Positions 9,752 to 20,764 of a DNA stretch of 32,417 nucleotides are shown here, piece by piece. Source of the DNA: an uncultured Chlamydiae bacterium (GTDB taxonomy: Bacteria; Chlamydiota; Chlamydiia; Chlamydiales; SM23-39); NCBI GenBank assembly GCA_903889795.1, contig CAISYW010000064.1, forward strand, positions 1 through 32,417, written 5' to 3'. The notes under the pieces are model-generated. The model did no database searches. It saw nothing but the letters and a program-made list of their open reading frames with translations, and was not told the origin of the DNA. Within the stretch, counting starts at the first letter, position 1, and each line of letters opens with the position of its first letter. Both the position numbers and the translations under genes were made by a program.

Positions 9752-12700
9752 TTAAAACATTTTGCCGACACGCATCGTGGCCTGGTTGTTGGAATAATTC
9801 GATCCATATTGTCCATCATATTGCAGCGATCCAAACCATCCGCTGCGATGTTGACAAAAGAATTCCACAGCAGCCGCAATGAGGTTTTGCGTTTTGATAA
9901 ATGATGTGACGGTGAACGATGAGGGAGCTCCCGTAAGAAAGGCCGTCACTTGGCCGACCTGAAAGGGGATCAGATTGACATAGCTCGCCTTGCCGCGCAG
10001 GAAAAAGGTTCCCCAGCTCTGATCCCGAGTATAGTATCCATTGAGCCCTGCCTCGCTGCGCAGTGCAGAGGAAAAATGTCGTGAGCGGTTCATGTTGAAG
10101 GGCGAAGCACTCTGTTCATTATAGGCTGAATCTCGGTTGCATGCCCAATCGACGGAGATGAATGGCTCAAGAATGCCCGGAAGGAAGCTGTAGTAGTATC
10201 CACTTGAAAGGTGCGCGTCGCCCTGGAAGGAATTGTACGAACTCCTGGCTGCGGCATCAAATCCGGGGAAGAATATATTGCGCTGATTTTCAGTGTGCTG
10301 CATGCCTCCCCAGAGGGCTCCTTCAATAAAAAGCCGGTTGAATTCGACGGTACTATAAATGGAGAGCAATCCGCTATTGATGGCAGCATGGCCAAAGTGT
10401 TGTTTTTCGTGGATGGATGCGTGGGTATAAGCCAACGCAGCTCCTAGCGTAGTACGTCCGAAGGTGAAGTCGCCGCCGATTAGCAGCCCGCCGCTTGTCG
10501 AGTTAAATCCCGGAACTTGGTGTTGTTCTTTTTGGTGGGTTAAATCACCAAATCCGGTAGCCCATAAAGAGTGATTTTTTGGACGGGGAAGCGGGCGCCT
10601 TTTGGGAAGTCGATCCATTACTTGCGCTCTGCTGCATGCGGTTAATTCATCAACCTCGAGGTCTGTATTATCGGCGAGAAAAGCTGCATCGCGCTCTTTG
10701 CCGATCATTCGCATGACGCGGTCATCGTTATTGCGCGAGTCCAGGATATTGCTGAGTGTGAAATTCGTGTTTTGTGAAATGGTTGTTGCGATTGCATCGC
10801 GAGCCGGGCTAATGGTATCTAATGCGTCTCGGAGCGGTTGGCCGGATAGTTCGTGAAGAAGGGAAAAGGTTTCCCCGACCAGATGGGAATTCGCGTTGAG
10901 ATACCTCGCAACGATTAGCCGGTTGCCGCGAAGGCCGGTAGTATCGATGCCGGATTGATGGTCAGAGTTAATAATATAAAAAACTTGATAGGGAGAGGAT
11001 GCGACCTGTTTATAAATAGAGCCATTCAGATGAGAAGTAACAAAATCAAAATCTCCGATTAATGCTGATTGAGCACTGATAATTTCATATGAAGTTCCTG
11101 CCGGATAAAAACCGGAAGGTACATCGATGAGAAGTTCGCCTCCAAGAGTGACCGTTCCATTGACAACCAATTTAGAACAGGTGCCGTTGGGATCGATTTC
11201 TATCTCTGTTACTCCGCTCGTCGTATAATCACCCTCTATGGTTAATGTGCCAATGGAGTTGCCGGGATGAACGGTTCCATTAGCATTTACGACGACACTG
11301 TTATTAATCGTTCCGACGCCTTTAAGGATGCCCCCGGAAACGCTTCCAACATTTATTACATTAGAATCGAGCGAAGAGCCGAGTGCTAAGGCAAGAGCTC
11401 CGTTATTAATATCCGTGTTCCCGGTATAACTTTGCGCTGTCGTGAACGTGAGAGTTCCGGCTCCGTTTTTAACGAGCTTGCCGTCCGTCCCTGCGATTCC
11501 ATTGCTAAAAGCTAAAGAAGCGGCGTTATCAAATTGAAGGGTGCTGGAATCGTTCAGAGTCACGTCAGAGGTTAGTGTCGCACCTGATGCTAAGGAAAGC
11601 GTTCCGCCGTCATTAACAGTAGTGGATCCGGTGTACGTATTTGCCCCGGAGAGCGTGAGTGTTCCGACTCCGTTTTTAATGAGCATGCCGCCAGTCCCTG
11701 CGATGCCATTGCTAAAAGATAAGGAAGCGGCATTATTAAATTGAAGGGTGCTGGAATTGTTCAGAGTCACGTCAGAGGTAAGTGTCGTGCCCGATGCTAA
11801 GGAAAGCATCCCTCCATTATTAACAGTAGTGGTTCCGGTGTAGGTATTTGCCCCGGAGAGCGTGAGTGTTCCGACTCCGTTTTTAACGAGCTTGCCGCCC
11901 GTCCCAGCGATGCCATTGGTGAAAGATAAAGAGCCGGCATTATTAAATTGAAGGGTGCTGGAAGTGCTCAGAGTCACGTCAGAGGTAAGTGTCGCGCCCG
12001 ATGCTAAGGAAAGCGTCCCTCCATTATTAACAGTAGTGGTTCCGGTGTAGGTATTTGCCCCGGAGAGCGTGAGTGTTCCGACTCCGTTTTTAACGAGCTT
12101 GCCGCCCGCCCCTGCGATGCCATTGCTAAAAGATAAAGAAGCGGCATTATTAAATTGAAGGGTGCTGGAATTGCTCAGAGTCACGTCAGAGGTAAGTGTC
12201 GCACCTGATGCTAAGGAAAGCGTTCCGCCGTCATTAACAGTAGTGGATCCGGTATATGCATTCGTTCCGGAGAGCGTGAGTGTTCCGGCTCCGTTTTTAA
12301 CGAGCTTGCCGCCCGTCCCAGCGATGCCATTGCTAAAAGATAAAGAAGCAGCGTTATCAAATTGAAGAGTACTCAGATCGTTTAGAGTCACGTCAGAGGT
12401 AAGTGTCGCACCTGACGCCAGAGAAAGCGTTCCTCCATTATTAACAGCAGTGGATCCGGTGTACGTATTTGTCCCGGAGAGTGTGAGCGTTCCGGCTCCG
12501 TTTTTAATGAGCATGCCGCCTGTGCCTTCGATGGAGCCGCTATAGTTAGTGTCAGTGGCACCTCCGATTGTGAGGGTGCCCGATCCTAATAGAATGGAAC
12601 CGGTTCCGGCGAGGCTTTTGATCGACTCATTGTAATTATTCAGATTCCATGAGCCGATGTTTTGCATAACGACAGCGACAGAAGGATCGATTTGACCCGA

Positions 12701-13891
12701 TTCCCGATGGAAGACCGTACCGCCGTCGACACTTCCAATGGTCAGGATCGTGTTAGCAGGAATTGCGACGCTGGACGATTTGTTTAGGTATAGAGTGCCA
12801 TTGATGACGCTTGTATTTCCCGTGTAGTCATTGCTCACGCTTCCGCTTATTTCCATAGCGTGGTTGACACTAGGGCCAGACATAGCTACCACAATGCCTG
12901 ATCCGCCAGTGATCTGACCGGTCACAAAGAGGGCGGTGGAATCTTCAGAAGAACCATCGAAATAAATGCCTCTTGTAAGAGTAAGAGGAAGAGTGATGGA
13001 TCCGCTTATCGTCGCAGGATGCACCGGGACATCGCATAGAATTTTAGCATAATCGCCTGTTCCGGTGAAAGCGATAGGTCCAGAAATGATTACATTATTA
13101 CTTAAAGCAAGCGGAATATGTAAGGATGTGTTTACATTGTTAAGAGAGAGTGTCGCGCCTCCTTGAGTTAAGGTGGTGTTGTTATTAAAATTTATGCTCC
13201 CTATTTCTGTAGAATACCCATTCATGTCAAACGTACCGTGATTTTGCAGAAACACCTGCAAATTATTGCTGAATTGATTCGAATGTCCCAGCTGAAGAAG
13301 AGCGTAGCCTCCAACAGTGACCTCAGCGCCATTTATCGCGCTGCCGGAAGTGTTATTTAAATAAAGCGTACCAGAAGCAAGATAAACATCATTTGCGATC
13401 GTTCCACGGATAATTGTATCTCCCGTTGATGTTGCGGAAAATTCAATCCCAGAAGTTCCCGAAATGTTGCCGGATAATGTAAAATCGGATGTCGAATTGT
13501 TGTTCACATTGAGGTCGTTAATCAATGTAATGGGAGCTGAAATAGTATGCTCACCCTGGGTAATCGTAATATTATTGTCGGTATAATCAAAAATCAAAGC
13601 GCTCGCGGTACCCTCTTGGATCGTGTAGCTATTGGGGCTGTTGAACGTAATTGAATTCACCGTAATGTTGGAAGTACCAGAGCTTCTTAGAGAAATTACC
13701 GCGGGGCCGGTAATCGTGCTTTCAAAGTGGGCGATATCATCCGAACCATTTGGGACGGTCGCGCCACTCCAATTCCCGGGGACATCCCAGTAGCCGTCGC
13801 CTGTCAGATTCCAGGTTGCGTTCGTCTGTCCCAAAAGGGCAGACGCGGCAAGGAGCTGTAGAGAATAATATAATAGTTTGTGTCTAGTCAT
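9752..13891 (-). CDS. Autotransporter with passenger-associated (PATR) repeats and C-terminal beta-barrel
   Basis: 1379 aa. N-terminal signal-like segment (MTRHKLLYYSLQLLAASALLGQTNA); repeated GxGTLTLSGxNTYTGxTTVNxGGTLSLASG units; barrel-like C-terminus (LWATGFGDLTHQKEQHQ... to ATMRVGKMF) ending in Phe. Confidence 0.9.
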   Translation of the reverse strand: MTRHKLLYYSLQLLAASALLGQTNATWNLTGDGYWDVPGNWSGATVPNGSDDIAHFESTITGPAVISLRSSGTSNITVNSITFNSPNSYTIQEGTASALIFDYTDNNITITQGEHTISAPITLINDLNVNNNSTSDFTLSGNISGTSGIEFSATSTGDTIIRGTIANDVYLASGTLYLNNTSGSAINGAEVTVGGYALLQLGHSNQFSNNLQVFLQNHGTFDMNGYSTEIGSINFNNNTTLTQGGATLSLNNVNTSLHIPLALSNNVIISGPIAFTGTGDYAKILCDVPVHPATISGSITLPLTLTRGIYFDGSSEDSTALFVTGQITGGSGIVVAMSGPSVNHAMEISGSVSNDYTGNTSVINGTLYLNKSSSVAIPANTILTIGSVDGGTVFHRESGQIDPSVAVVMQNIGSWNLNNYNESIKSLAGTGSILLGSGTLTIGGATDTNYSGSIEGTGGMLIKNGAGTLTLSGTNTYTGSTAVNNGGTLSLASGATLTSDVTLNDLSTLQFDNAASLSFSNGIAGTGGKLVKNGAGTLTLSGTNAYTGSTTVNDGGTLSLASGATLTSDVTLSNSSTLQFNNAASLSFSNGIAGAGGKLVKNGVGTLTLSGANTYTGTTTVNNGGTLSLASGATLTSDVTLSTSSTLQFNNAGSLSFTNGIAGTGGKLVKNGVGTLTLSGANTYTGTTTVNNGGMLSLASGTTLTSDVTLNNSSTLQFNNAASLSFSNGIAGTGGMLIKNGVGTLTLSGANTYTGSTTVNDGGTLSLASGATLTSDVTLNDSSTLQFDNAASLAFSNGIAGTDGKLVKNGAGTLTFTTAQSYTGNTDINNGALALALGSSLDSNVINVGSVSGGILKGVGTINNSVVVNANGTVHPGNSIGTLTIEGDYTTSGVTEIEIDPNGTCSKLVVNGTVTLGGELLIDVPSGFYPAGTSYEIISAQSALIGDFDFVTSHLNGSIYKQVASSPYQVFYIINSDHQSGIDTTGLRGNRLIVARYLNANSHLVGETFSLLHELSGQPLRDALDTISPARDAIATTISQNTNFTLSNILDSRNNDDRVMRMIGKERDAAFLADNTDLEVDELTACSRAQVMDRLPKRRPLPRPKNHSLWATGFGDLTHQKEQHQVPGFNSTSGGLLIGGDFTFGRTTLGAALAYTHASIHEKQHFGHAAINSGLLSIYSTVEFNRLFIEGALWGGMQHTENQRNIFFPGFDAAARSSYNSFQGDAHLSSGYYYSFLPGILEPFISVDWACNRDSAYNEQSASPFNMNRSRHFSSALRSEAGLNGYYTRDQSWGTFFLRGKASYVNLIPFQVGQVTAFLTGAPSSFTVTSFIKTQNLIAAAVEFFCQHRSGWFGSLQYDGQYGSNYSNNQATMRVGKMF
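11461..12500 (-). repeat. Five tandem 207-bp (69-aa) in-frame repeats in the autotransporter passenger
   Basis: AGAGTCACGTCAGAGG anchors occur at 11556, 11763, 11970, 12177 and 12384, exactly 207 bp apart. A second anchor (CTCCGTTTTTAA) runs from 11461 to 12496, i.e. 1035 = 5 x 207. Confidence 0.95.
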
Positions 13892-14260: not shown

Positions 14261-15065
14261 GTGCGCCACGAGGCGCTTTATTAACGTGTCGCCTGAAATG
14301 GCGATCAAGGAAGGATACCCATCTGCCTTGCACTGAGTCTTGAACACAGGAAGGTAACGACCTGGGTTAAGCGTAGATAGGGAGGCTGTAGGCCGTAATG
14401 TGCAATAAAGTGATTGAGCCCCGAAATAGCAAAATGGGAAAGGTCCATGTTTTCAAAATAACAGAAGACAACACCAACTGATCCGATATGGGAAGGAGCA
14501 GGTGGCGCCCCGGGATCGGAGAGCACGGCATGCAACCGAAGGAAATAAAGCGAACGTGGGAGACCCTAATGGCCCTTTAATAAGAAGTATCAGGCAACAA
14601 GCAGAAAAGCAAGGAGCCCGAAAAGGCCATTAGGGAGTCAGATGGATCATACTACCTATGAAACCAGTAACGATGGTGGAGGGAAGGATCCTAGGTAAAT
14701 TATCAACCCAAGTAAAGGAAACGCCGCATGGGGCAACAGAACCTCTCAGCGACGAACACGAAACTGAACAGGATAGCCTGGTTATCAAAACAAGACCCGA
14801 AGAAGGAGTTCGGATGCTTAATGCACCTCTTCAACAACGAGTCACTACTAGAATGTTTCTACGAGCTCGATAAAAACAAAGCCGTGGGAAAAGTTTCGGT
14901 TGTTCATGAGAGCTGATCCTCTCCCCACCAGCAAAATAGTCCACTCACTGTTTAAGACATCAAGCAGGTGAAGGATAGATATCTGGAGCCCGTTGCCTTA
15001 ATTGGGCCCGGCGAGTTCTAACGAGGGGGAAGCCAAGCAATTGTCTCCTCTTCTCTCTCAATTAT
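14261..15065 (+). mobile_element. Degenerate, internally deleted group II intron (3' end approximate)
   Basis: GTGCG at 14261 matches the conserved 5' end. Paired CCCTAATGGCC / GGCCATTAGGG segments, an RT N-terminal remnant (14728-14916), then GAGCCCGTTGCCTTAATTGGGCCCGGCGAGTTC, which folds like domain V with a 2-nt bulge, and a GAGGGGGA...TCTCCTC domain VI-like stem. Confidence 0.72.
14728..14916 (+). pseudogene. Truncated group II intron reverse transcriptase/maturase (N-terminus only)
   Basis: MGQQNLSATNTKLNRIAWLSKQDPKKEFGCLMHLFNNESLLECFYELDKNKAVG then unrelated KVSVVHES-stop. 'ELDKNKAVG' is where intact RTs continue VDGVT.... RT domains 1-7 are missing. Confidence 0.75.
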
Positions 15066-18167: not shown

Positions 18168-19375
18168 GTTTCCTTAACGAGACGCCAGCACTCTCGGGCG
18201 ATTTCAAACGCTTCTTGTGTGTGAATAATCAATACTCGGATTTTTGAATTTTTGTGGGCGATATCGCAATCTTCCGGAGGCGGGGCATCATTTTTTTGGG
18301 CGTCGAGTTCAATGCCTAAAAATGAAAAACGATCGCAGACTTTTTTTCGCAGCAGGGGGGTGTTTTCGCCAATACCGGCGGTAAAGACTAAAACGTTTAT
18401 TCCCTGCAGCGATGCAATCATCGAACCAATGCTGGCGCACAATCGGTGAATGTAAAGATCGAAAGTGAGCTGGGCTCTTGGATTTCCCGATTGGATGCCT
18501 TTTAAGATTTCGCGCATATCGCTTGAAATTCCCGATACGCCCAAGATGCCGGACTCGCGATAGAGTTCATTGGTCAAGGCATGGACGTCGATATGTTTAA
18601 GCCGCTCGAGGATGATTCCGGGATCGATCGTGCCGGAGCGGGTGTTCATCATTAAGCCTTCGAGGGGAGTAAAGCCCATCGTCGTGTCCTGGCTTTTGCC
18701 GTCTTTCACGGCGCAAAGCGATGCTCCGGCGCCCAGATGGCAGATGACTATTTTTGATGCGGGAAACTCGTTTTGTATGATTTCCGCTGCGCGTTTTGAA
18801 CAATATTGATAACTGATTCCGTGAAAGCCGTAGCGTTGAATGCCTTCTTCGAACCATTTGTAGGGGCCGGGATATATTGCAGCTTCCGGAGGAAGCGTGC
18901 GATGAAAGGCGGTATCGAAAACGGCGATTTGCGGTAAGCCTTTGAACATCTTCTCCATCGCTTCGATGCCGGTCAATGCAGCCAAATTATGAAGGGGAGC
19001 AAACTCGGCTAAACGGGAAATATGAGATTTAACGTCTTTATTAATGAAAACGCTTTCGCGGTAATATTTTCCTCCATGAACGATGCGATGGCCAATTGCA
19101 TCCACTTCATCGAGAGACGACAACACGGCTGTTTCTCCATGAACAAGCGAGTTCATCAGTTCTGCCCGCGCCTCATCTAATGATCGGGTAGTCAGTTTGA
19201 AAAACTGTTTTTTCCCGTGCTCGTTCTTCACTTCGATCGATACGTCATCAAATGTGCCTTTCCATTGCAAACTGCCTTCCCATGTCGGAGAAACGGGTTT
19301 TTGAGAATGATTTTTGAGGATATAGAGAGATGATTTGAGACTGCTTGATCCGCTATTGAGAACTAAAATTTTCAT
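18164..19375 (-). CDS. ackA: Acetate kinase
   Basis: 403 aa. MKILVLNSGSSSLKSSLY, GHRIVHGGKYY, AVFDTAFHRTLPPEAAIYPGPYKWFEEGIQRYGFHGISYQY, ICHLGAGASLCAVKDGKSQDTTMGFTPLEGLMMNTRSGTIDPGI, FTAGIGENTPLLR. Confidence 0.97.
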   Translation of the reverse strand: MKILVLNSGSSSLKSSLYILKNHSQKPVSPTWEGSLQWKGTFDDVSIEVKNEHGKKQFFKLTTRSLDEARAELMNSLVHGETAVLSSLDEVDAIGHRIVHGGKYYRESVFINKDVKSHISRLAEFAPLHNLAALTGIEAMEKMFKGLPQIAVFDTAFHRTLPPEAAIYPGPYKWFEEGIQRYGFHGISYQYCSKRAAEIIQNEFPASKIVICHLGAGASLCAVKDGKSQDTTMGFTPLEGLMMNTRSGTIDPGIILERLKHIDVHALTNELYRESGILGVSGISSDMREILKGIQSGNPRAQLTFDLYIHRLCASIGSMIASLQGINVLVFTAGIGENTPLLRKKVCDRFSFLGIELDAQKNDAPPPEDCDIAHKNSKIRVLIIHTQEAFEIARECWRLVKET

Positions 19376-19977
19376 CTTTGTGCCGTTTCATTCCACAGTT
19401 TAATGACGCGTTGATCGTGTTCCATAGCGAGAATGCTCACGGATGCCACGGAAAGGGAAAAAAGCTTGCCATCTTCGGCCTGGAGGCCGAGCCATCGGGC
19501 GGCAAAGACCCGAGAAAAATGACCATGAGAGAAAATGAGAATATTTCCGCTTTCATGAATGAAGGACTTCAGGAGGCGGTCGGCTCTTTCAGCTACTTCG
19601 TCCGGGGATTCGCCTCCGGGAGCTCCATCGTCGAAAATATTCCATCGAGCATGTTTTTCCCAAATTTGGGGAGTCGTGATTCCCTCATACTCCCCATAAT
19701 TCCATTCCATGGCGCTCGGCTCGATTGTTTTTCGATGATCAAAGCCGGCCAGCTGGCAGGTTTCTTGCGCCCGCAGCATCGGTGATACGATCACCTTGTG
19801 AAAGACAATCCCTTGGAGTCTTTTTCCAAGCATGATCGCTTGCTTTCGTCCGTTTTCGGTGAGGGAAACCTCGCTAAAACTGGTATGCTGACCTGTGAGG
19901 GTCCACTCGGTTTCTCCATGCCGACACAGAAAAATTTGCAAGCGATCAGGGTTTTTAGTGGTGATGTCCGCCACCAT
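19372..19977 (-). CDS. Histidine phosphatase (phosphoglycerate mutase-like) family protein
   Basis: From the in-frame ATG at 19977: MVADITTKNPDRLQIFLCRHGETEWTLTGQHTSFSEVSLTENGRKQAIMLGKRL...VSPMLRAQETCQLAG...MEWNYGEYEG...ILIFSHGHFSRVFAARWLGL. RHGE and the second His motif are present. The track's longer N-terminus is the out-of-frame read of the upstream His-rich tail. Confidence 0.9.
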   Translation of the reverse strand: MVADITTKNPDRLQIFLCRHGETEWTLTGQHTSFSEVSLTENGRKQAIMLGKRLQGIVFHKVIVSPMLRAQETCQLAGFDHRKTIEPSAMEWNYGEYEGITTPQIWEKHARWNIFDDGAPGGESPDEVAERADRLLKSFIHESGNILIFSHGHFSRVFAARWLGLQAEDGKLFSLSVASVSILAMEHDQRVIKLWNETAQR

Positions 19978-20362
19978 GATGTCCGCCGCCGTGATGCCTT
20001 CCACCGTGATGACCGCCATGATGTCTTCCACCATGATGTCCTCCGTGATGCCCGCCGTGATGGCGCCCACGATACCATCGATGGTATCCCGGCTCATTAT
20101 CAAACCATGTGCCATAGTACCAACCCGGACCGATCCAGACTTCCTGAGTGGCGCCGCCATAGTAGTGACGATTCACGCGAACCCATCGATAGTATGCAAC
20201 GTCGTCATCAAACCAATATCCATAGTAATACCCGGGTCCGGCCCAGACTTCTTGGACTACTGCGTCATCTGGCCCGACGCCAACCTCGACTCCGGTTTTT
20301 ACCATGGCATCGATAGAAATAAATGGAATAATTAGAACAAAAAAAGCTAATAACTTACGCAT
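19955..20362 (-). CDS. Secreted small protein with two EVWxGPGxYYGxWFDxxxxYxRW repeats and a His/Gly-rich C-terminus (candidate metal binder)
   Basis: 135 aa. Signal peptide MRKLLAFFVLIIPFISIDA; QEVWAGPGYYYGYWFDDDVAYYRW and QEVWIGPGWYYGTWFDNEPGYHRW; tail GRHHGGHHGGHHGGRHHGGHHGGRHHGGGHHGGGHHH. Paralogue of the adjacent upstream ORF. Confidence 0.82.
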   Translation of the reverse strand: MRKLLAFFVLIIPFISIDAMVKTGVEVGVGPDDAVVQEVWAGPGYYYGYWFDDDVAYYRWVRVNRHYYGGATQEVWIGPGWYYGTWFDNEPGYHRWYRGRHHGGHHGGHHGGRHHGGHHGGRHHGGGHHGGGHHH

Positions 20363-20404
20363 AAACCCCTTTCGCTTCTCTCAAGTTTCAAAAGATACCT
20401 GTTT

Positions 20405-20764
20405 TTATCGGCGTCCGCCGCCATGACCACCACCGCCATGACCACCACCGCCATGACCACCACCGCCGTGTCGACCACCACCGCCATGACCGCCGTCATG
20501 ACGATCGCCACGTCCATCATGACGTCTGCCATCAGCATGTCGATCGCCGTGCCCACGATGGCCGCGGCCACCATGATGACGATGGTATGAGTCCTCATCA
20601 TCGAACCAATATCCATAGTAGAAGCCAGGTCCGACCCACACTTCTTCAACCGTGCCATCGTCGCTGTCGTCTGTGCCGACTTCGATTGCAACGCCTGTTT
20701 TTGCCATTGCACTAATTGAATAAAACGGAATTAACAAAACGAAAAATGCTAATAACTTTCGCAT
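20405..20764 (-). CDS. Secreted small protein, paralogue of 19955-20362, with a His/Gly/Arg-rich tail
   Basis: From the in-frame ATG at 20764: MRKLLAFFVLLIPFYSISAMAKTGVAIEVGTDDSDDGTVEEVWVGPGFYYGYWFDDEDSYHRHHGG...GGHGGGGHGGGGHGGGRR. The track start at 20869 adds 35 unlikely residues ahead of the signal peptide. Confidence 0.82.
   Translation of the reverse strand: MRKLLAFFVLLIPFYSISAMAKTGVAIEVGTDDSDDGTVEEVWVGPGFYYGYWFDDEDSYHRHHGGRGHRGHGDRHADGRRHDGRGDRHDGGHGGGGRHGGGGHGGGGHGGGGHGGGRR
20422..20466 (-). repeat. 15-bp tandem repeat (CATGACCACCACCGC) x3 encoding GGGGH units
   Basis: Copies at 20422, 20437 and 20452, with degenerate copies downstream. Confidence 0.85.

What the first reader, a model, noticed from the sequence alone, without database searches (positions are those of the whole stretch)
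19955..20764. Tandem paralogous secreted proteins with an EVWxGPGxYYGxWFD motif and runaway His/Gly tails
Two adjacent minus-strand ORFs share a near-identical signal peptide (MRKLLAFFVLxIPF) and an EVWxGPGxYYGxWFDxxxxYxR module: two copies in 19955-20362, one in 20405-20764. Their tails have diverged (HHGGHHGG... versus GGGGHGGGGH.../RHDGR). Secretion plus His-rich tails suggests extracytoplasmic Zn/Ni/Cu binding or buffering. The aromatic module upstream of the tail matches no family I recognise. Possibly a small undescribed envelope protein family.
Basis: partly seen in the sequence, partly recalled or inferred. Interest (0 to 1): 0.65.

Follow-up and report, generated by a model that had tools for sequence, protein, structure and literature searches.

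The report
Secreted aromatic-module proteins of environmental chlamydiae
Two neighbouring genes in a chlamydia-like bacterium encode small, apparently exported proteins with an unusual tryptophan/tyrosine-rich module and a histidine/glycine-rich tail; the module defines a phylum-restricted protein family that no library searched here describes, and its job is unknown.

Summary
Two tandem minus-strand genes (19955-20362, 135 aa; 20405-20764, 119 aa) share a signal-peptide-like N-terminus (17 of 20 residues identical) and the module VWxGPGWYYGxWF-DNExxYxxW (two copies and one copy). They are under protein-level constraint (dN about 0.18 against near-saturated dS).

The module defines a family found in 34 of 234 chlamydial genomes (60 modules, E at most 1.3e-6, then a sharp gap). 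A scan of 84,980 GTDB genomes returned 14 loci, all chlamydial. Pfam, NCBIfam, PHROGs and PDB gave no reliable match. AlphaFold2 predicts a beta-hairpin plus helix (local pLDDT 80-87), with no Foldseek match.

The His tail is not the defining part. Tails vary from HHGG and HDHD to RGG and Q/K-rich; 15 of 50 members have under 10% His. Metal binding by the window's tails is chemically plausible but untested. Neighbours are not conserved, so the adjacent type III secretion genes look incidental.

Best reading: small exported envelope proteins in which a folded aromatic mini-module does the binding or anchoring and a fast-evolving low-complexity tail coats or chelates. The function is inferred, not shown. 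A weak motif resemblance to fucose lectins (RSL/BambL) is noted, but family membership is not met.

The parts
19955..20362 (-). Gene A: signal-peptide-like N-terminus + short V/acidic linker + two aromatic modules + (HHGG)n tail, 135 aa
20303..20362 (-). Signal-peptide-like N-terminus of gene A (MRKLLAFFVLIIPFISIDAM)
   Evidence: sequence; heuristic score, no SignalP available
20177..20251 (-). Module 1 of gene A, EVWAGPGYYYGYWFDDDVAYYRWVR (approximate)
   Evidence: profile match G000:C64:20165-20257, E 2.7e-12 (model built with window sequences included)
20069..20143 (-). Module 2 of gene A, EVWIGPGWYYGTWFDNEPGYHRWYR (approximate)
   Evidence: profile match G000:C64:20057-20149, E 3.6e-14; 36 residues after module 1
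19958..20065 (-). His/Gly tail of gene A, HHGG repeats with mixed synonymous codons
20405..20764 (-). Gene B: paralogue with one aromatic module and a G/H/R/D tail, 119 aa
20570..20644 (-). Module of gene B, EVWVGPGFYYGYWFDDEDSYHRHHG (approximate)
   Evidence: profile match G000:C64:20558-20650, E 5.1e-13
20408..20566 (-). Tail of gene B: R/H/G/D-rich, then near-exact GGGGH 15-bp repeats
19372..19941 (-). Downstream histidine phosphatase (His_Phos_1), likely TTG start 13 bp after gene A's stop; the same module-gene/phosphatase pair occurs in G195 and G196
   Evidence: start codon inferred

Best explanation
The two genes are a tandem duplicate pair of a Chlamydiota-restricted family of small exported envelope proteins. 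Each has a Sec-type signal peptide (a likely lipobox in a few relatives), a flexible acidic/Tyr-rich linker, one or two copies of a 25-residue mini-domain (W-x-G-P-G-W-Y-Y-G-x-W-F then D-N-E-x-x-Y-x-x-W, predicted beta-hairpin + helix), and a low-complexity tail rich in Gly with His and/or Arg. Most likely the aromatic mini-domain is the specific part: it packs against or binds a partner in the envelope or on the cell surface (glycan, envelope protein, or another copy of itself). The tail is a fast-evolving multivalent polymer that coats, sticks to polyanions, or in the His-rich members binds metal or responds to acid pH. Shown here: the genes, the family, the module's conservation and restriction to the phylum, the variability of the tails, and repeated tandem duplication. 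Inferred: export, the fold, ligand binding, and everything about the tail's chemistry in vivo.
For: Purifying selection between the paralogues. 34 of 234 chlamydial genomes and 60 modules at E up to 1.3e-6, with nothing between that and 0.01. The genus-independent constant is the module: in 59 modules, G9 (not part of the pattern used to collect them) is 59/59, position 11 is W or Y in 58/59, position 12 is F or Y in 58/59, position 18 is always aromatic, and W21 is 40/59. 42 of 50 N-termini pass a simple signal-peptide-like score (63 of 271 background ORFs), and the rest lie just under it or are uncertain starts; three have lipobox-like Cys, and two more (LLPTGC) look similar by eye. AF2 gives hairpin + helix for each module with pLDDT 80-87 and disordered linkers. 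Cys occurs as a flanking pair just before W1 and after the helix in 5 of 7 Cys-bearing modules, consistent with one compact unit in an oxidising compartment (four of the five are tandem paralogues, so two independent cases at most). Tandem arrays of 2-5 genes recur in several genera, some with near-identical N-termini.
Against: No localisation, expression or binding data. Neither model is globally confident (pTM 0.39 and 0.42), and Foldseek finds nothing, so the fold is provisional. The family is patchy (34 of 234 genomes; MAGs are incomplete), so it is dispensable to most chlamydiae. No conserved neighbourhood points to a pathway.
Confidence: 0.5

Rival explanations
1. Extracytoplasmic metal (Zn/Ni/Cu) binding or buffering is the main function, carried by the His tail; the module only anchors the protein.
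For: Window tails are 49% and 19% His; median tail His in the family is 26% against 2.3% in background ORFs; several relatives have HDHDHD or HHDHHD runs typical of metal-binding loops. Histidine-rich loops of the periplasmic protein PA4063 contribute to zinc binding (PMC8561739, abstract).
Against: 15 of 50 members have under 10% His in the tail and the tail is the least conserved part. No conserved metal transporter or regulator neighbour. In one genus (g123) a separate His-rich exported protein lies nearby, but it matches no metal family in Pfam.
Confidence: 0.22
2. The module binds carbohydrate in the manner of the RSL/BambL/AAL fucose lectins, through two tryptophans five residues apart (WxGxGW), making these small adhesins.
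For: Module 2 of gene A matches fucose-binding lectins in the PDB at E 0.0049 to 0.3, and a relative at 0.08. Profile comparison with two lectin repeats gives 70% probability over 14 columns (not independent, because the lectin was chosen as the top hit). In BambL, Trp74 and Trp79 contact fucose (PMC5478714).
Against: The family profile finds no PDB chain at E up to 10 and a third relative does not hit lectins. There is no conserved Arg/Glu pair before the module, module spacing is 25-37 rather than about 45 residues, most members have one module, and AF2 predicts a hairpin plus helix instead of a propeller blade. Both motifs are Trp/Gly/Tyr-rich, so convergence is easy.
Confidence: 0.13
3. 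Self-assembling coat protein: acidic/Tyr linker, aromatic module and His/Gly/Arg tail condense outside the cell in a pH- or metal-dependent way, like histidine-rich squid beak proteins.
For: Linkers are negatively charged in 46 of 50 members (median -6) with Gly-rich tails carrying His/Arg. His-rich squid beak proteins phase-separate (PMC6884462, abstract). Rhabdochlamydia elementary bodies have an unexplained five-layered envelope (PMC9723776, PMC6490308), and the family occurs in three genomes of a genus that looks like Rhabdochlamydia.
Against: Analogy only. Tail net charge is near zero in the median and negative in 17 of 50. No envelope proteomics.
Confidence: 0.12
4. Type III secretion substrates or accessories, since the pair lies next to sctJ-sctT.
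For: Genes start about 450 bp downstream of sctT on the same strand.
Against: A signal-peptide-like N-terminus is not the type III route. None of the relatives examined lies beside T3SS genes.
Confidence: 0.03

Closest known systems
RSL/BambL/AAL-type six-bladed beta-propeller fucose lectins
   Same: W-x-G-x-G-W-Y-x-G-x-aromatic motif; two Trp five residues apart; short repeats, sometimes two per chain
   Different: No Arg/Glu sugar ligands, spacing 25-37 instead of about 45, predicted hairpin + helix, no profile hit
Histidine-rich periplasmic metal-binding proteins (ZrgA/PA4063 type)
   Same: Apparent export and His-rich low-complexity stretches in many members
   Different: No homologous fold or domain; His not conserved in the family; no zinc-transport neighbours
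Histidine-rich squid beak proteins and similar Gly/His/Tyr-rich coacervating proteins
   Same: Composition: Gly, His, aromatic residues, low-complexity repeats
   Different: No sequence homology; these have a defined 25-residue module and are bacterial

Membership tests
RSL/BambL/AAL fucose lectins | Blade motif with two Trp five apart (W-x-x-x-G-W) | tested here: met
   W1 59/59 (part of the search pattern) and W6 37/59, otherwise mostly aromatic or Leu; phmmer E 0.0049 at best
RSL/BambL/AAL fucose lectins | Conserved Arg and Glu sugar ligands upstream of the Trp pair | tested here: not met
   No conserved Arg or Glu in the 16 residues before W1
RSL/BambL/AAL fucose lectins | Four-stranded blades of about 45 residues forming a six-bladed propeller | tested here: not met
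   Spacing 25-37; AF2 hairpin + helix at moderate confidence; no Foldseek propeller hit
RSL/BambL/AAL fucose lectins | Fucose binding | not testable with these tools
   needs glycan array or ITC
Histidine-rich periplasmic metal-binding proteins | Conserved His-rich metal-binding segment | tested here: not met
   15 of 50 tails below 10% His; met for the window pair themselves
Histidine-rich periplasmic metal-binding proteins | Exported or periplasmic | tested here: inconclusive
   Signal-peptide-like N-termini by a heuristic only
Histidine-rich periplasmic metal-binding proteins | Measured Zn/Ni/Cu binding | not testable with these tools
   needs ITC or IMAC with untagged protein
Any Pfam / NCBIfam / PHROG family | Score above the curated cut-off | tested here: not met

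The most novel reading that the evidence does not exclude
A phylum-specific minimal (about 25-residue) folded aromatic module that anchors multivalent, metal- or pH-responsive low-complexity tails to the surface of environmental chlamydiae, forming a protein coat that varies by tandem duplication and tail turnover.
Probability: 0.15. Interest if true: 0.7.

Novelty: new variant of a known kind. Interest (0 to 1): 0.4.

Why it matters
Environmental chlamydiae share few characterised surface proteins with the pathogens, and what builds the unusual envelopes of Rhabdochlamydia-like lineages is unresolved (PMC9723776). A defined, apparently exported module with a clean profile gives a handle for annotating dozens of orphan genes. 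If the three g124 genomes are Rhabdochlamydia as they appear, a cultivable species may carry a copy, so localisation could be tested.

Tried and rejected
Family libraries Pfam, NCBIfam and PHROGs and the PDB by sequence and profile: no reliable match. Weak stray hits (MotB plug, mitochondrial 6.8-kDa proteolipid, LupA, SH3_16) come from one member each and do not recur. Foldseek against PDB: nothing below E 6. Plasmids (nucleotide and protein) and IMG/VR contigs: no relative. Conserved neighbours: only a histidine phosphatase and an RNase II-like gene shared by the window, G195 and G196; elsewhere neighbours are genus-specific. Direct link to the adjacent T3SS operon: rejected, not conserved. 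MORN and choline-binding repeats were considered from memory for the G-x-Y-x-G-x-W look; Pfam did not report them. A possible rule that tandem pairs combine one His-rich and one His-poor tail is visible in five of six pairs but is not significant by a rough hand estimate. The upstream linker of one relative used as a query found nothing in a sample of 50 genomes that did not include its own genome, so that search is uninformative.

Full report
WHAT IS THERE. The window is contig C64 of a 1.57-Mb, 83%-complete chlamydial genome (the phylum is inferred from the chlamydial-type T3SS genes and from the named relatives). On the minus strand, after sctJ...sctL-sctR-sctS-sctT and a gap of about 450 bp, lie two genes, 20405-20764 (119 aa) and 19955-20362 (135 aa), then a histidine phosphatase and acetate kinase. 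Both small genes have purine-rich ribosome-binding-like sequences ahead of their ATG. Their N-termini are 85% identical over 20 residues, and over 59 aligned codons silent divergence is near saturation (pS 0.72) while replacement divergence is low (pN 0.16). They are therefore old duplicates held by protein-level selection. The first gene carries two modules 36 residues apart, the second one.

THE FAMILY. With the tail removed, the first protein finds relatives in other chlamydial genera at E down to 3e-17. Profiles built from the modules find 34 of 234 chlamydial genomes, 22 genera in four families as the tool numbers them, with 60 modules at E from 3e-17 to 1.3e-6 and nothing else below 0.01 (first round). 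The 84,980-genome GTDB scan with the motif WxGPG[WL]YYG returned 17 stretches, 14 of them relatives, all in records that are chlamydial by title or that match the chlamydial genomes already found. The scan used one strict pattern, so divergent relatives outside the phylum could be missed. Viral contigs and plasmids gave none. None of the 34 genomes belongs to family f4, whose 1.0-1.3 Mb near-complete genomes look like the Chlamydiaceae (inference from size).

ANATOMY. Consensus: [V/I]-W-x-G-P-G-W-Y-[Y/W/G]-G-x-[W/Y]-F-[D/G/S]-[N/D]-E-x-[D]-[Y/F]-x-x-W-[R/H]. The members tabulated were collected with the pattern W.G[PA][GA].Y, so those positions are conserved partly by construction; G9, the aromatic positions 11, 12 and 18, and W21 are not. 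AlphaFold2 models of the window proteins with 18 relatives or paralogues give, for each module, two short strands and a helix at pLDDT 80-87, with disordered linkers and low pTM (0.39, 0.42). Foldseek finds no PDB match. In G132 and G201 a Cys just before W1 is paired with a Cys after the helix in the same module (5 of 7 Cys-bearing modules). This fits a compact unit in an oxidising compartment, but only two lineages are involved. Linkers are acidic in 46 of 50. Tails range from HHGG and HDHD to RGG and Q/K/S-rich; 29 of 50 have at least 20% His and 15 of 50 under 10%.

GENE DYNAMICS AND CONTEXT. Tandem arrays occur in the window (2), G130 (3), G132 (5), G134, G165, G167, G201 and G065 (2 each). 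In the window, G132 and G167 some array members are each other's nearest relatives, with N-termini up to 85% identical, so duplication is lineage-specific there; in others the members are as distant as unrelated copies. The only neighbour shared across genera is the histidine phosphatase (with an RNase II-like gene further off), adjacent to or overlapping the module gene in G195 and G196 and 13 bp downstream in the window. G132 has a different, apparently exported histidine phosphatase nearby and divergent, which may be coincidence. The type III secretion genes next door are not conserved neighbours.

WHAT IT PROBABLY DOES. The constant part is the module, so the module should carry the specific function; the tails turn over quickly and probably act through bulk chemistry. 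I favour exported envelope proteins whose module binds or packs against an envelope or surface partner, with the tail as a multivalent coat. Metal binding by the His-rich members, including the window pair, is plausible but cannot be the family's general function. A local resemblance to fucose-lectin blades overlaps two fucose-contacting tryptophans of BambL (PMC5478714; the residue-to-residue correspondence is my inference from spacing), but the Arg/Glu ligands, spacing, predicted fold and profile test do not fit. It is a lead for a glycan array, not a classification.

LIMITS. No SignalP was available; export rests on a hydrophobicity heuristic (42 of 50 against 63 of 271 background ORFs) plus three lipobox-like N-termini. 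Start codons of the 50 tabulated relatives were chosen by a script favouring signal-peptide-like starts, which biases that count upward. Most genomes are MAGs, so absences are soft.

Noticed in passing
window 14295-14525 (+): Rfam match to a group II intron (RF02005 group-II-D1D4-6, 122.8 bits) between the autotransporter-like gene and the amino-acid permease; no long reading frame overlaps it in the ORF list.
   Followed up: no
window 11447-12533: Five copies of a 207-bp repeat (89% alike) inside the 1379-aa autotransporter-like ORF 9752-13891 (-), encoding GTLTLSGxNTYTG repeats.
   Followed up: no
L089:6837-10284 (G132): Five tandem family genes with nine modules; four have two modules, the first of each with a flanking Cys pair, and very different tails.
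   Followed up: partly
L062/L063 (JAFEGK010000007.1): Record titled Verrucomicrobia bacterium SZAS-16, but its contig corresponds to genome G165, which the genome set places within the chlamydial phylum; the deposited label looks wrong.
   Followed up: partly
L087:5239-5907 (+), L088:9840-10502 (-): A second, unrelated His-rich exported-looking protein (221-223 aa) lies 1-3 kb from the module gene in genus g123; no Pfam family above cut-off.
   Followed up: partly
window 19372-19941 (-), L076:556-1134, L077:5057-5629: Histidine phosphatase adjacent to the module gene in three genomes of two genera, with overlapping or near-overlapping stop and start; possible operon.
   Followed up: partly
tandem pairs in window, L080, L093, L095, L111: In five of six two-gene arrays one tail is His-rich and the other His-poor; not significant by a rough estimate.
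   Followed up: partly
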